Shown one piece after another: positions 22,144 through 27,448 of a stretch of DNA of 64,000 nucleotides. A program made the position numbers and the translations under genes. A model generated the notes under the pieces. The model worked only from the letters and a program-made list of their open reading frames with translations, made no database searches and was not told the origin of the DNA. Source of the DNA: Pseudomonadota bacterium. GTDB taxonomy: Bacteria; Pseudomonadota; Gammaproteobacteria; Steroidobacterales; JBCBZW01. Each line of letters opens with the position of its first letter. Position 1 is the first letter of the stretch. The stretch covers positions 62,001 to 126,000 of the forward strand of contig JBCBZW010000002.1 in the NCBI GenBank assembly GCA_039815145.1, in the 5' to 3' direction.

Positions 22144-22347
22144 CAGTCAAGACTATTCCGTTAGGCGGTCGATAGGGGCGAAAGGTGCAAAGTGCAGGTC
22201 GTGGGCAACTCGCGAATCCATTTGCTGTATTGTTGAAAAAACGACGACCTCTTGCAAAAAGCCGTTTCATTTCCCAAGAAGTTCGTGCTACTCCTGGAGA
22301 TGCCGTTTGACATAAAGCGGACTTCAATTTCATCCAAGGAGCGATCG

Positions 22348-22539
22348 ATGACCAAACCCACCTCGAAAACGTCTGGCGAGCTGTTTGCGTTCAAGCTAGC
22401 AACGAAGAAGTCGGAGCACCAGTCGCAGAAGCGTACGCAGTGGCAGACCCGCGACGGCGTATCCGCGGCTGGTTGCACCGTCAACCTTCGCGGTCATGTG
22501 CTCTGCCCGTCCTGGGGCGACGGCGGTAACTTCTGCTAG
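22348..22539 (+). CDS. Putative RiPP precursor peptide, 63 residues, three evenly spaced cysteines
   Basis: The peptide has a Lys/Thr/Gln-rich leader-like half (1-36) containing ELFAFKL (11-17), reminiscent of the PFFARFL helix that microviridin ATP-grasp ligases recognise. A hydrophobic and Gly-rich second half (37-63) has Cys43, Cys53 and a carboxyl-terminal Cys63, exactly ten residues apart, with Trp56, Asp58, Thr44 and Ser55 as other reactive residues. AAGGAG (22336-22341) sits six bases before the ATG and fixes this start over an in-frame ATG at 22252. A hairpin and then an ATP-grasp maturase gene follow. Function is inferred from size, leader motif and neighbours; the mature product is unknown and no homolog is recognised. 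Confidence 0.7.
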   Translation: MTKPTSKTSGELFAFKLATKKSEHQSQKRTQWQTRDGVSAAGCTVNLRGHVLCPSWGDGGNFC

Positions 22540-22564
22540 GTCACTAGCGAGCTAGCGTACGAGT

Positions 22565-22597
22565 TGGGCATGCCGCATACCGTCACCGGCATGCCCA
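22565..22597 (+). terminator. Strong hairpin between RiPP precursor and maturase (partial terminator or RNA stabiliser)
   Basis: GGGCATGCCG (22566-22575) pairs perfectly with CGGCATGCCC (22587-22596), and one outer T-A pair makes an 11-pair stem with an 11-base loop. No T-run follows. Between a precursor and its enzymes such a hairpin usually lets the short precursor message outnumber the downstream message, by partial termination or by protection from 3' exonucleases. Confidence 0.6.
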
Positions 22598-22661
22598 TCT
22601 CACCGAGACCAACGGGTGCGCGTGGTGTTCCAGTGCGCCTCGACGCCAGGGGTAGGGCAGT

Positions 22662-23654
22662 GTGAGTAAGCGTATTCTGATCGTCACGCACACGGGCGAC
22701 CTTCACGCGGAGCGCGTTGCGCGGCGTATCGCGGATGCCGCACCGCCCGCCTTCCACCTGAATTTAGACAGATTTCCTCGCGACTACGCGCTCGAGTTGG
22801 CGTTCTCCCGGGGGCGCTGGCACGGGCAGTTGCAGGGCGGGGGTCAGGCGCCGCTGTCGATCGATGAGGTCGGCGCCGTGTGGATGCGCAAGCGAGGAGA
22901 GTTCACCTTCGCAAGCGATGCGCTCAGCGCTCAGGAGCGCGCCTACGCGAGCGGTGAGGTCGAGCATATCCTGATGGGGCTCCTCTACAGCCTCGACTGC
23001 TTTTGGATGAGCCACCCGCGGGCCTTGCGCGCAGCGGGGTGGAAGGGCGAGCAGCTGTTGCGGGCCGCAAGTATGGGCTTCCAGGTGCCGCCGTCGCTCA
23101 TCACCAACCAGCCGTCGGCGGTGCGGGAGTTCCATCGGGCACAGCCTGGCATCGTGTTCAAGTCCCTGTCCTCGCCATTGCTCGCGGCGGAGCAGGTGAG
23201 CGATCGGGATCGCATGGTCGACGGTATTCCCACCACGCCCGTTGGGGAAGATGAGTTGGATCTCGTGGAGTCCGTCGCGGTGATGCCATCGTTCTTCCAA
23301 CGGCACGTTCGCAAGAAGCATGAACTGCGGGTGACTGTGATCGGCAACGACGTGTTCGCGGCTCGGATCCACTCGCAGGACGATCCGCGTACGGCGGTGG
23401 ACGTACGCAACTACGCGGCAGAGATTCGCTACGAAACGGCGCAGCTGCCTACCGCGTTGCTCGATCGCTGTCGCGCGTTCGTGCACAGCTACGACCTTAC
23501 CTACGGAGCCCTCGACATCATCGTGACCGAGGACGATGAGTACGTTTTCCTGGAGAACAACCCCGGTGGCCAGTACCTCTACGTCGAGGAGCTGGTCCCG
23601 GAGCTGCGCATGACCGAGGCGGTGGCAACCTGCCTGCTGCGGGGCGCGAGGTAG
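22662..23654 (+). CDS. MvdC/MvdD-like ATP-grasp peptide maturase
   Basis: This 330-residue protein belongs to the ATP-grasp ligases that make ester or amide cross-links in microviridin-type peptides (graspetides). Typical segments are the amino-terminal ILIVTHTGDLHAERVA, the central MSHPRALRAAGWKGEQLLRA followed by GFQVPPSLITNQP, the Arg/His-rich substrate region FFQRHVRKKHELRVTVIG, and the ATP/Mg-binding FLENNPGGQYLYVE at about 296-309 with Glu298, Asn300 and Gln304. Known members activate acidic side chains of the precursor by acyl phosphate. The start is GTG at 22662. The protease gene begins 6 bases after its stop. Only one ligase is present, unlike the MvdC/MvdD pair of microviridins. 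Confidence 0.85.
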   Translation: MSKRILIVTHTGDLHAERVARRIADAAPPAFHLNLDRFPRDYALELAFSRGRWHGQLQGGGQAPLSIDEVGAVWMRKRGEFTFASDALSAQERAYASGEVEHILMGLLYSLDCFWMSHPRALRAAGWKGEQLLRAASMGFQVPPSLITNQPSAVREFHRAQPGIVFKSLSSPLLAAEQVSDRDRMVDGIPTTPVGEDELDLVESVAVMPSFFQRHVRKKHELRVTVIGNDVFAARIHSQDDPRTAVDVRNYAAEIRYETAQLPTALLDRCRAFVHSYDLTYGALDIIVTEDDEYVFLENNPGGQYLYVEELVPELRMTEAVATCLLRGAR

Positions 23655-23660
23655 GGCGCC

Positions 23661-24521
23661 GTGCTGAGCTTTCCTGAACTGAACACACTCGAGACCCACC
23701 TCGGCCATCCCGTTCTTGTGCTCGGTGCGGTGAACCTGGAGCTCGACCTGGTCGCCGAGCTGTACGAGGCGCTGCACACGATCGACGGTCACGAGCGCCT
23801 GGGCGTGCTGATCTACACTCGCGGTGGCATCGTCAACGCGGCCCGGCGTATCGCCCTGTTGCTGCGCGAGCGCTTCGAGCACATCACGTTCATCGCCCCC
23901 CATTATTGCGAGTCGGCCGGCACGCTGACGGTGTTGAGCGGGGACCACATCGTGGCGAGCCCAGCGTCGATCTTCTCGCCCATCGACCCACAGCTATCCG
24001 GCACGGGGGAGGGTAGCGGGCCCGCGGCCGTGTCGAGCCAAGACGTGCGCTTATTCGGTGAGATGGCGAAGGCGTGGTTCCACCTGAGCGACGATGAGGT
24101 GCGCTCCAACGCCCTGAGCACCATGGCCGAAGCGATGTTCCCCACCACCCTGACGGCCTTCTACCGGACCACGTTGGAGGTGAAGACCATCGCCCACGAG
24201 CTGCTCGCCCTGCATCGGTGCGAGCGCTCCTCGCAGGCGCGTGGCGAGATCGTCGATCGCCTGCTGTTCGAGCACCACTCGCACAACTACGCGGTCACCG
24301 CCCAGGAGTTGAAGCTGCTCGGCTTGTCCGTCGCCTCAGACGAGACGATCGAACCCGCGAGCTGGGCGGTCGCACGCAGGCTCGGCACGCGACTGGGCGC
24401 AGGCACGCGCACGCGCGACGACGAAGACTGGACGGACACGGTGGTCGCGACGCGCGCCCGCGTTCGGTGGCGACGGGTCAGCCACCAGGGCATGGGCTTC
24501 ACGTGGGAGGGGAACGGATGA
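23661..24521 (+). CDS. SDH-type ClpP-fold serine protease
   Basis: The protein of 286 residues resembles the SDH (serine dehydrogenase proteinase) family, relatives of SppA and ClpP. Recognisable are the strand and oxyanion Gly motif LIYTRGGIVNAARRI (about 50-64), the nucleophile elbow with Ser85 in CESAGTL, and the stretch SPIDPQLSG (about 106-114) that matches the GPIDPQ of this family. Catalytic His or Lys partners would come later. The start is GTG and the stop overlaps the next gene (ATGA). No signal peptide is visible, so it acts in the cytoplasm. Since the ABC exporter lacks a peptidase domain, this enzyme is the best candidate to remove the precursor leader. Confidence 0.75.
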   Translation: MLSFPELNTLETHLGHPVLVLGAVNLELDLVAELYEALHTIDGHERLGVLIYTRGGIVNAARRIALLLRERFEHITFIAPHYCESAGTLTVLSGDHIVASPASIFSPIDPQLSGTGEGSGPAAVSSQDVRLFGEMAKAWFHLSDDEVRSNALSTMAEAMFPTTLTAFYRTTLEVKTIAHELLALHRCERSSQARGEIVDRLLFEHHSHNYAVTAQELKLLGLSVASDETIEPASWAVARRLGTRLGAGTRTRDDEDWTDTVVATRARVRWRRVSHQGMGFTWEGNG

Positions 24522-25063
24522 CCACGCCGGTGTACCTGGCGGAGATCGCACGGCTGTTCGTGGCCATCACCCTGGTGGTCGCCGTGCTCGGCAAGTGCTT
24601 GGCCACAAGGTCTTTCATCGTCAGTCTCACCGATCAATTCCGTGTGCCCGATGCCCTGGGGCCGTTCGTGGCCTGGGGACTCATCGCGCTCGAGGCGACG
24701 GTGGCGGCTGCGTTGCTCATGCCCGTGGCGCAGACGGTGGACCTAGGGGTGCGCGCCGCCCTGGTGCTGTTCGCGCTCTTCGGGCTGCTGATCGCCTCGG
24801 TGCTGCTGCGACGCCAACCCGTGTACTGCTATTGCTTCGGTCAGGCGACGCAACCGCTCGGCGCCGCCGACTTGCTTCGCAACATCACGCTGGTGGGGGC
24901 TTGTGTGCTGGCCATGCGCTGGGGCGCGGGTGAGGCGCCGCTGGCGCTCGGCACCTGGTTGTCAGTAGCGGCGGCTGGCCTCGTAGGCTTCCTCATGAGC
25001 GCGCATCTGGGAACGGTGGTCCAGCTGCTGGCGACGCCCACCGAGGAGGCCCCCCTTGGCTGA
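24518..25063 (+). CDS. MauE/DoxX-like redox-associated membrane protein
   Basis: This 181-residue protein has four to five hydrophobic segments and the MauE family marker CYCFG (Cys104 and Cys106) followed by ADLLRNITL; other cysteines are Cys27 and Cys129. MauE was first known from methylamine dehydrogenase maturation, where it helps disulfide formation together with the thioredoxin-like MauD. No mauA/mauB genes are present here, so that role is excluded. The ATG overlaps the protease stop, and its own end overlaps the following thioredoxin-like gene. It probably exchanges electrons with that protein in the membrane to oxidise (or reduce) cysteines of the exported peptide. Confidence 0.75.
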   Translation: MTTPVYLAEIARLFVAITLVVAVLGKCLATRSFIVSLTDQFRVPDALGPFVAWGLIALEATVAAALLMPVAQTVDLGVRAALVLFALFGLLIASVLLRRQPVYCYCFGQATQPLGAADLLRNITLVGACVLAMRWGAGEAPLALGTWLSVAAAGLVGFLMSAHLGTVVQLLATPTEEAPLG

Positions 25064-25619
25064 CCCACTCGTCACGGCGTTGCTGATCGTGCTCGTCCCC
25101 GCCGTCGCGCTGAACCTGTGGCTCACGCAGCGGCTGTCCTCGCGCCTCCGCCACGCGATGACCGCCGAGCCCGCGCTCACCTGTGCGATCGACGCGACCG
25201 TCCCCGAGTTCTCCGGGAGGCGCCTGGTTGACGGTACGCCCGTCGCAGACGCCGCCCTCGCAGGGCAAGCCAACGTGTTGGTGTTCCTGTCCACCGCGTG
25301 CGGTGACTGCCGGCGCAAGCTGCCGGTGCTCGAGGAGTTACTGGAGCCGATGGAGCGGCACGGCGTTCAGCTTTGGTTGCTCTCCCAGGAGCCGCCGGCG
25401 CGGCTGCGCAGGTTCATCCAGCGGGATGCGTTGCGAGCGCGCGTCGTTCGCCTCGATCGGCGTGCGTACCAGCGTTTGAATCCGCGCTACGCAGCACCGC
25501 TGTACCTGTTCGTTGACGACCAACAGGTGGTCAGGGCCGGCGACTTCATCGGCGATGAGAACTGGCGGGCCTTCGTGGACCAGATCCTCGCCGCGCCCTC
25601 CATGCGGGAGGCGAGCTGA
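25056..25619 (+). CDS. Membrane-anchored thioredoxin-like protein (CGDC), MauD-like
   Basis: The product of 187 residues has an amino-terminal membrane segment (about 5-23) and a TlpA/MauD-type thioredoxin domain with the active site CGDC at 82-85 in VFLSTACGDCRRKLP. The cis-Pro side is seen later as AAPLYLFVDD. The domain should face the periplasm. The start is TTG, well supported by GAGGAGG (25043-25049) six bases upstream; it lies within the end of the MauE gene. Its stop overlaps the exporter start (TGATG). Its pairing with MauE points to disulfide handling of the three-cysteine precursor. Confidence 0.8.
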   Translation: MADPLVTALLIVLVPAVALNLWLTQRLSSRLRHAMTAEPALTCAIDATVPEFSGRRLVDGTPVADAALAGQANVLVFLSTACGDCRRKLPVLEELLEPMERHGVQLWLLSQEPPARLRRFIQRDALRARVVRLDRRAYQRLNPRYAAPLYLFVDDQQVVRAGDFIGDENWRAFVDQILAAPSMREAS

Positions 25620-27448
25620 TGTCGCGGTCGGCGGGGCGCTGGCGCAGGCAGGCGGAGGGGCTCAGCCGCCTCGGGCTGCTGCAGGAATTTCGTTGGCCGC
25701 TGCTCGGCGGCTTGGGATTGCTGGTCATCGCATCGGGCTCGCAGTTGGCGTACCCCCTGGTGTTCTCCTGGTTCATCGACCATATCGTGGTCGAGCAAGA
25801 CCTCGCGTGGCTCGGCGCCGCGCTGCTCATCGGCGCGCTGGTGCTGGTCCTGCAGGCCGCGGCAGCCAGCGGTCAGTATTACCTCTTCGCCTCGACCGGA
25901 TCGAAGATCGTGGCGAGGCTCCGGCATCGCCTCTACGCTGCCATGCTGCGGCGGGAGATCGCGTTTTTCGATCGCCAGAACGTGGGGGATCTCACCAACC
26001 GCCTCGCAGCCGACGTCGAGAAGATCCAATCCACCCTGACCGTGGAGACGGCGCTCTTCATGCAGACCCTGCTGATGGCGCTGGGCAGTATCAGCATGCT
26101 GCTGGTCTTGTCGCCGACGCTGGCCGGGGTGGCGTTGCTGATCGCGCCGGCGATGGTGGTGTCCGCGCGCTGGATCGGCGGGTTGATCAAGACCCACTCG
26201 ATGGCCCGCCAAGATCGCCTCGCGGCCTGTGCGCAACACGCGCAGGAGACGCTATCCAACGTGCGCGTCGTGCACGCCTTCGCCCAGGAGGCGAATGAAA
26301 CCGCACGCTACGGCCGCGCCACGCAGGACGCGCTCGACCACTCGCTCGCCTGCAACCGCATGTTCGCCGGGGTGCAGGGGGTGAACGCCATGGTTCAGGG
26401 GGGCGCCTTGCTGGTCACCCTGTGGTGGGGTGGCCGCCTGGTGGCCGCCGGCACGATCAGCGTCGGCGATCTCGCCGGCTTCGTCCTGTACGCGAACATG
26501 GCCGCGGGGGCCGTCGGCACGTTGAGCACGCTCTGGGGCGAATGGATGCAATCGGTGGGCGCCACCGAGCGAGCCTTCGAGCTGCTGCAACACGCACCCG
26601 AGCCTGGCCGTGGGGCTGGAGGTGAACGTGAGGCGCGATCGCGGCAAGCGGCAGCGAGCGGCTGCATCGAATTCGAGGCGGTGTCCTTTGCCTATCCGAC
26701 CCGTGCGGGGCATCGCGCGCTGGAGGGCATCTCCCTGACCGTCGCCCCCGGTGAGAAATTGGCGTTGATCGGCCCCTCGGGATCCGGCAAGACCACGCTG
26801 GTCAACCTGCTCCTCGGCTTCTATCCGCCCAGCGAGGGGCGCCTGTGCGTCGGCGACATGGACGTGCGCGAAATGGATCGCCTTGCCCTGCGCGCCCACA
26901 TCGCGGTGGTCGAACAGGAGCCTGTGCTGTTCACCGGCACGATACGGGAGAACATGGTGTACGGGTGTGACGCGGCGGCCGCGATCGACGAGGCGCGTTT
27001 CATGGCGGCGGCGGTCGACGCCAGCGTCCACAGCTTCGTCGCCGAACTCCCGGGTGGTTACGAGACCGAAGTAGGGCACCGTGGGCTGCAACTCTCCGGT
27101 GGCCAGAAGCAGCGCGTCGCGATCGCGCGCGCGTTGCTACGAGACCCGAGCATTCTGATCCTCGATGAGGCCACGAGCGCCCTCGACTCGCAGAGCGAAG
27201 GACTGGTGCAGGCAGCGTTGGCGCGGCTGATGGTCGGCCGCACCACCGTCATCATCGCCCATCGCCTCTCCACGGTGGCGCACGTCGATCGTCTGGTGGT
27301 GATGAACAAGGGGCGGATCGAGCAGGTTGGCACGCACCAGCAGCTGTCGGCGCAGGCATCGGGTCTGTACGCACAGCTGTTGCGTAGGCAGCGGTTGGCG
27401 GCGGAGGTGACGTTGGAGACGGAGATGCCCCCGACCCGATGTGCCTGA
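25619..27448 (+). CDS. ABC exporter, fused membrane and ATPase domains, no peptidase domain
   Basis: This 609-residue half-transporter has a type IV (ABCB-like) membrane domain of six helices (about 20-330) and an ATPase with Walker A GPSGSGKTT (385-393), signature LSGGQKQR (492-499), Walker B LILDEATSALD and the H-loop AHRLST. It should act as a homodimer. An amino-terminal C39 peptidase, common in bacteriocin exporters, is absent. It is the last gene of the coupled protease-MauE-thioredoxin-exporter set, so the likely cargo is the modified peptide. The MsbA-type sequence alone would also fit lipid or drug export. Confidence 0.88.
   Translation: MSRSAGRWRRQAEGLSRLGLLQEFRWPLLGGLGLLVIASGSQLAYPLVFSWFIDHIVVEQDLAWLGAALLIGALVLVLQAAAASGQYYLFASTGSKIVARLRHRLYAAMLRREIAFFDRQNVGDLTNRLAADVEKIQSTLTVETALFMQTLLMALGSISMLLVLSPTLAGVALLIAPAMVVSARWIGGLIKTHSMARQDRLAACAQHAQETLSNVRVVHAFAQEANETARYGRATQDALDHSLACNRMFAGVQGVNAMVQGGALLVTLWWGGRLVAAGTISVGDLAGFVLYANMAAGAVGTLSTLWGEWMQSVGATERAFELLQHAPEPGRGAGGEREARSRQAAASGCIEFEAVSFAYPTRAGHRALEGISLTVAPGEKLALIGPSGSGKTTLVNLLLGFYPPSEGRLCVGDMDVREMDRLALRAHIAVVEQEPVLFTGTIRENMVYGCDAAAAIDEARFMAAAVDASVHSFVAELPGGYETEVGHRGLQLSGGQKQRVAIARALLRDPSILILDEATSALDSQSEGLVQAALARLMVGRTTVIIAHRLSTVAHVDRLVVMNKGRIEQVGTHQQLSAQASGLYAQLLRRQRLAAEVTLETEMPPTRCA

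What the first reader, a model, noticed from the sequence alone, without database searches (positions are those of the whole stretch)
22474..22536. Cysteines at exactly ten-residue spacing in the precursor core, with Cys as last residue
Translated from 22348, Cys lies at 43, 53 and 63, so the core reads as two ten-residue units each opened by Cys and closed by a terminal Cys. Acidic side chains, the usual acceptors in graspetides, are scarce: only Asp58 and Asp36. The carboxyl-terminal Cys and its free carboxylate could therefore be a site of activation or of a disulfide. An odd number of cysteines suggests one disulfide plus one free or otherwise modified thiol, or a dimer.
Basis: partly seen in the sequence, partly recalled or inferred. 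Interest (0 to 1): 0.6.

Follow-up and report, generated by a model that had tools for sequence, protein, structure and literature searches.

The report
Cysteine-ended graspetide with disulfide-forming genes
A short bacterial peptide is probably closed into a double ring, by an ester bond made by a dedicated enzyme and a disulfide bond made by two redox proteins encoded beside it; the even ten-residue spacing of its three cysteines is coincidence, but the first and last cysteine define a whole family.

Summary
Translated from 22348, the precursor has Cys at 43, 53 and 63, as stated. The ten-residue spacing is not a family feature. Among 93 distinct homologous precursors the middle Cys occurs only in the two species of this genus, and the distance from first to last Cys runs from 18 to 32 residues. 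The two flanking cysteines are invariant. The core is C-[S/T]-loop(11-25)-D-x-G-x-x-C, after a conserved FAF leader and an A-G junction. The synthetases form one well supported clade of microviridin-type ATP-grasp ligases. Their operon adds a ClpP/SppA-fold protease, a MauE membrane protein with an invariant CxC, a thioredoxin-like protein with an invariant CxxC, and an ABC exporter. MauE and the thioredoxin sit beside 30 of 33 such loci and beside 0 of 27 other loci of the ligase superfamily. Best reading: a graspetide with one ester (Thr44-Asp58) nested inside a disulfide (Cys43-Cys63), with a variable loop. Cys53 is a local extra. The chemistry is inferred, not measured. I found no description in the papers I could search, but key graspetide catalogues were unavailable.

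The parts
22336..22341 (+). AAGGAG ribosome-binding site of the precursor gene
   Evidence: read from sequence, six bases before the ATG
22348..22539 (+). precursor peptide gene, 63 residues, TAG stop
   Evidence: 93 distinct homologues next to ATP-grasp genes; mostly synonymous core changes against G001
22381..22401 (+). leader motif LFAFKLA (residues 12-18), presumed synthetase recognition helix
   Evidence: F13, A14 and F15 invariant in A1; analogue of the Phhx(1,2)h leader motif of PMC8939145 but without the Pro
22441..22473 (+). conserved leader-core junction W-x-x-R-D-G-V-x-x-A-G (residues 32-42); predicted cleavage after Gly42
   Evidence: W in 92, A(-2) in 92 and G(-1) in 93 of 93 precursors
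22474..22536 (+). core CTVNLRGHVLCPSWGDGGNFC: Cys43, Thr44, 13-residue loop, Asp58, Cys63
   Evidence: C, [S/T], D at -5 and C conserved in 93 of 93
22477..22479 (+). Thr44, proposed ester donor
   Evidence: Ser or Thr directly after the first Cys in 93 of 93
22504..22506 (+). Cys53, lineage-specific third cysteine
   Evidence: only in the window and G001, 2 of 93
22519..22521 (+). Asp58, proposed ester acceptor
   Evidence: Asp five residues before the last Cys in 93 of 93; only acid in this core
22561..22601 (+). 15-base-pair stem-loop between precursor and synthetase genes, probable read-through regulator
   Evidence: 93% complementary arms, kept with a different loop in G001; z -4.5; many relatives have a stem in the same place
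22662..23654 (+). graspetide synthetase (MvdD/TIGR04187-type ATP-grasp ligase)
   Evidence: PF21068 1.6e-16; TIGR04187 3.9e-70; CdnC 7mgv 1e-40; R223, D285, E298 and N300 invariant in the clade
23661..24521 (+). SDH-type ClpP/SppA-fold serine proteinase, candidate leader peptidase
   Evidence: PF01972 1.5e-15; S85, D109 and H208 conserved; model matches ClpP and SppA
24518..25063 (+). MauE-family membrane protein with invariant C104-x-C106
   Evidence: PF07291 8.3e-20; Cys invariant in 30 sequences; helical model pLDDT 87
25056..25619 (+). membrane-anchored TlpA/MauD-like thioredoxin-fold protein with invariant C82-x-x-C85
   Evidence: PF00578 6.3e-9; CxxC invariant in 30 sequences; the anchor is inferred from the hydrophobic N-terminus
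25619..27448 (+). ABC exporter without a C39 peptidase domain
   Evidence: PF00664 and PF00005, no C39 peptidase match

Best explanation
The gene encodes the precursor of a graspetide with a second, redox-made crosslink. Proposed steps: (1) the ATP-grasp synthetase binds the FAF leader, phosphorylates the side chain of Asp58 and joins it to the hydroxyl of Thr44, giving one omega-ester loop; (2) the ClpP/SppA-fold protease cuts after Ala41-Gly42, leaving Cys43 as the first residue; (3) the ABC exporter moves the peptide across the inner membrane; (4) the anchored thioredoxin-like protein, coupled to MauE, oxidises Cys43 and Cys63 to a disulfide, closing the peptide end to end outside the ester. 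The product is a bicyclic hairpin of about 21 residues that displays a variable, Arg-containing loop. Cys53 is an extra thiol of this genus, free or used for dimerisation. Shown by comparison: the conserved residues, the operon and its specificity. Inferred: every chemical step, their order, and the biological target (an Arg-directed protease inhibitor or a toxin against other bacteria are both possible).
For: 93 distinct precursors from Lysobacteraceae, the family of Massilia, Caulobacteraceae, the family of Pseudoalteromonas and this genus share GC[ST]...D-x-G-x-x-C (G in 92); loop length varies from 11 to 25 and sequence varies widely. In the window Asp58 is the only core acid. The synthetase matches MvdD, MdnB/MdnC and CdnC and its clade is one group at 100/100 against 27 other ligase-family loci. 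MauE and TlpA-like genes sit next to 30 of 33 untruncated loci (window included) and 0 of 27 controls; the protease is likewise absent from all 27. A Deinococcus relative with an LFAF leader but no Cys in its putative precursor lacks all three genes. Invariant CxC and CxxC. MauE in RiPP clusters, with a suspected role in disulfides, was noted in PMC7794033.
Against: No mass or structure exists. TIGR04187 is matched below its curated cut-off (236 against 350 bits). The leader lacks the usual Pro. Three Lysobacteraceae loci lack adjacent MauE and TlpA; for one of them the genome has a second, complete locus. Thioredoxin/MauE pairs could reduce or isomerise rather than oxidise. The MauE model found no solved homologue. 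The association rests on two clades, so it is few independent events.
Confidence: 0.66

Rival explanations
1. Thioester variant: Cys43 (or Cys63), not Thr44, attacks the activated Asp58; after leader removal the N-terminal Cys43 thioester shifts to the free amine, giving an amide-closed ring.
For: Cys43 is invariant and predicted to be N-terminal after cleavage; PMC12291112 reports that ATP-grasp ligases can form thioesters on substituted substrates and that an S-to-N acyl shift can follow.
Against: It leaves the invariant Ser/Thr44 and the second invariant Cys with the redox genes unexplained.
Confidence: 0.1
2. In this genus Cys53 takes part: disulfide Cys43-Cys53 or Cys53-Cys63, or an intermolecular dimer through the odd thiol.
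For: Three Cys are kept in both species of the genus with synonymous changes around them.
Against: The family-wide pair is the first and last Cys; the middle one is absent in 91 of 93. Compatible with the best explanation for the rest of the family.
Confidence: 0.25
3. MauE and the thioredoxin-like protein keep the cysteines reduced, and the thiols bind a metal or form a mixed adduct, so the peptide is a metallophore or redox peptide.
For: TlpA-type proteins are often reductants (general knowledge).
Against: No metal-handling gene in the operon; two Cys at the two ends of a short peptide fit a disulfide better.
Confidence: 0.1
4. Ten-residue units each opened by Cys, are the functional design.
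For: Exact 43/53/63 spacing in the window and G001.
Against: Absent from all other homologues; end-to-end Cys distance 18 to 32; no similarity between the two units.
Confidence: 0.02

Closest known systems
Microviridins and other graspetides made by MvdC/MvdD, MdnB/MdnC and CdnC
   Same: homologous ATP-grasp synthetase, short precursor just upstream, aromatic-rich leader motif, invariant hydroxyl donor and acid acceptor, ABC exporter
   Different: no TxKYPSD-type core; one predicted ester; flanking invariant Cys pair; MauE, thioredoxin-like and SDH protease genes; leader FAFKLA without Pro
Fuscimiditide and graspimiditides (stem-loop graspetides, PMC12291112)
   Same: nested crosslinks closing a loop of tolerant length
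   Different: there two side-chain crosslinks plus an aspartimide made with a methyltransferase; here one ester plus a predicted disulfide
Graspetide group 9 of the RODEO surveys, over half with a serine proteinase (PMC13097080)
   Same: possible match through the serine proteinase
   Different: its core motif and member list were not in the text I could read, so identity is undecided
MauE/MauD-containing candidate RiPP clusters of decRiPPter (PMC7794033)
   Same: MauE, in one case with MauD, next to predicted precursors
   Different: those are Streptomyces families; the ATP-grasp candidates in that study were said not to resemble microviridin-type ligases

Membership tests
graspetides | microviridin-type ATP-grasp synthetase in the cluster | tested here: met
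   PF21068 above cut-off; TIGR04187 3.9e-70, below that model's curated cut-off; CdnC and MdnB/MdnC-type structures matched
graspetides | conserved Ser/Thr/Lys donor and Asp/Glu acceptor in the precursor core | tested here: met
   Ser/Thr44 and Asp58 in 93 of 93
graspetides | conserved leader recognition motif (Phhx(1,2)h or PFFARFL) | tested here: inconclusive
   invariant FAF followed by hydrophobic residues but no Pro
graspetides | side-chain ester or amide crosslink in the product | not testable with these tools
   needs mass spectrometry
microviridins (group 1) | TxKYPSD-type core and paired MvdC/MvdD ligases | tested here: not met
   core is C[ST]...DxGxxC and there is one ligase
graspimiditides (fuscimiditide type) | protein isoaspartyl methyltransferase in the cluster | tested here: not met
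   the other operon products are an SDH protease, MauE, a thioredoxin-like protein and an ABC exporter
disulfide-containing RiPPs | conserved Cys pair with dedicated thiol oxidoreductase genes | tested here: met
   Cys pair in 93 of 93; CxC and CxxC genes at 30 of 33 loci against 0 of 27 controls
disulfide-containing RiPPs | disulfide present in the mature product | not testable with these tools
   needs mass spectrometry with and without alkylation

The most novel reading that the evidence does not exclude
A new graspetide class in which an ATP-grasp ester and a dedicated MauE/thioredoxin-made disulfide are nested to close a loop of free length and sequence, with a ClpP/SppA-fold enzyme as leader peptidase; some genomes carry up to ten variants in tandem, a natural loop library.
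Probability: 0.45. Interest if true: 0.7.

Novelty: new variant of a known kind. Interest (0 to 1): 0.5.

Why it matters
If true, a known peptide class gains a second kind of crosslink and a dedicated oxidation system, and the open question of which enzyme removes graspetide leaders gets a concrete candidate of a fold not mentioned in the leader-peptidase review I searched (PMC10885120). The invariant frame around a hypervariable loop of 11 to 25 residues is also a ready scaffold for making doubly locked peptide loops.

Tried and rejected
Ten-residue repeat units: rejected by 93 homologues. C-terminal carboxylate activation: disfavoured, because three precursors in genome G298 end in Cys-Ala. 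Asp36 as acceptor: it lies in the leader and is D or E in only 81 of 93. Named precursor family: none in Pfam or NCBIfam for any of 16 precursors. Arg in the loop as proof of protease inhibition: present in 93 of 93 and slightly more than shuffles give (2 of 2000 reach it), but Arg is 16% of loop residues and the sequences are related, so it is only a hint. Structural match for MauE: none. A second copy of the precursor in the window's own genome: only chance matches. A phylum-wide sample of 398 genomes found no clear further member besides the window's own, so the family is patchy. Literature: no held paper has both 'graspetide' and 'MauE'; two papers I wanted, Ramesh 2021 and the Choi and Link review, were not held.

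Full report
Observation. The frame from 22348 gives a 63-residue peptide with Cys at 43, 53 and 63 and Cys as last residue. A ribosome-binding site precedes it, and the sister species G001 keeps the core with five synonymous codon changes and one conservative replacement. The acid count holds for the core and its edge, while the leader also has Glu11 and Glu23.

Family. The window's synthetase led to 13 related loci in named genomes, and the precursor profile to more in the families of Massilia, Lysobacter and Pseudoalteromonas. After removing one chance reading frame there are 93 distinct precursors. All have Gly-Cys-Ser/Thr, Asp five residues before the last Cys, and that Cys at the end (90) or followed by one Ala (3). 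The count pattern demanded GC[ST], but a looser search of the same loci for FAF-led short frames showed no precursor without it. The distance between the two Cys is 18 to 32. The middle Cys occurs in the window and G001 only.

What the conserved residues say. Graspetide synthetases join Ser, Thr or Lys to Asp or Glu through an acyl phosphate (PMC13097080). In this family one hydroxyl position and one acid position of the core are invariant, and in the window Asp58 is the only core acid. The simplest prediction is one Thr44-Asp58 ester. The first and last Cys lie outside it, at the predicted first and last residues of the mature peptide if the leader is cut after the near-invariant Ala-Gly. A disulfide would close the peptide end to end around the ester loop. 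The loop varies from 11 to 25 residues and differs widely even between tandem copies; genome G298 has ten precursors.

Operon. Downstream lie a ClpP/SppA-fold SDH protease, MauE, a thioredoxin-like protein and an ABC exporter without a C39 peptidase domain. The same order is kept in most relatives, though some have the exporter gene on the other strand nearby or not at hand. MauE carries an invariant CxC and the thioredoxin-like protein an invariant CxxC. As a control I took 27 other loci matched by TIGR04187 in the Lysobacter family and in the window's class: none has the protease, MauE or the thioredoxin-like gene nearby, against 30 of 33 untruncated related loci for MauE and the thioredoxin-like gene. 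A Deinococcus plasmid locus with a 37% identical ligase and an LFAF-led, Cys-free putative precursor also lacks them. On a tree the 35 Cys-type ligases are one side of a branch with 100/100 support, so the contrast is between clades and should not be read as dozens of independent events. The controls are distant, some on long branches, and not all are proven graspetide ligases.

Comparison with the literature. The ligase is homologous to CdnC and the MdnB/MdnC type. The surveys that number graspetide groups mention conserved cysteines in some precursors (PMC8939145) and a serine proteinase in more than half of group 9 (PMC13097080). I could not read the group lists, so this clade may already bear a number. 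MauE next to predicted RiPP precursors, and its suspected role in disulfides, is on record (PMC7794033). I found no report that combines a graspetide with a dedicated disulfide system.

Limits. No bond has been measured. The direction of the MauE/thioredoxin reaction, the cleavage site, the order of steps and the target are inferred.

Noticed in passing
window 22561-22601: A 15-base-pair inverted repeat with an 11-base loop lies between the precursor and synthetase genes; G001 has a perfect 15-base-pair stem at the same place with a different loop, and many relatives have a stem there, some shaped like a terminator. It probably sets precursor above enzyme expression.
   Followed up: partly
L094 (G298:C1, about 2407443-2409640): Ten tandem precursor genes in one genome, three of them ending in Cys-Ala instead of Cys.
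   Followed up: partly
L007, L102 and L106: Three Lysobacteraceae loci have precursors and ligase but no adjacent MauE or thioredoxin-like gene; the genome of L007 has a second, complete locus (L095), so the oxidation pair may serve both.
   Followed up: partly
L178:5672-6885 (Deinococcus wulumuqiensis plasmid): A related ATP-grasp gene follows a short frame MKNLFAFHVGK... with the same LFAF motif and no Cys: perhaps a Cys-free cousin.
   Followed up: no
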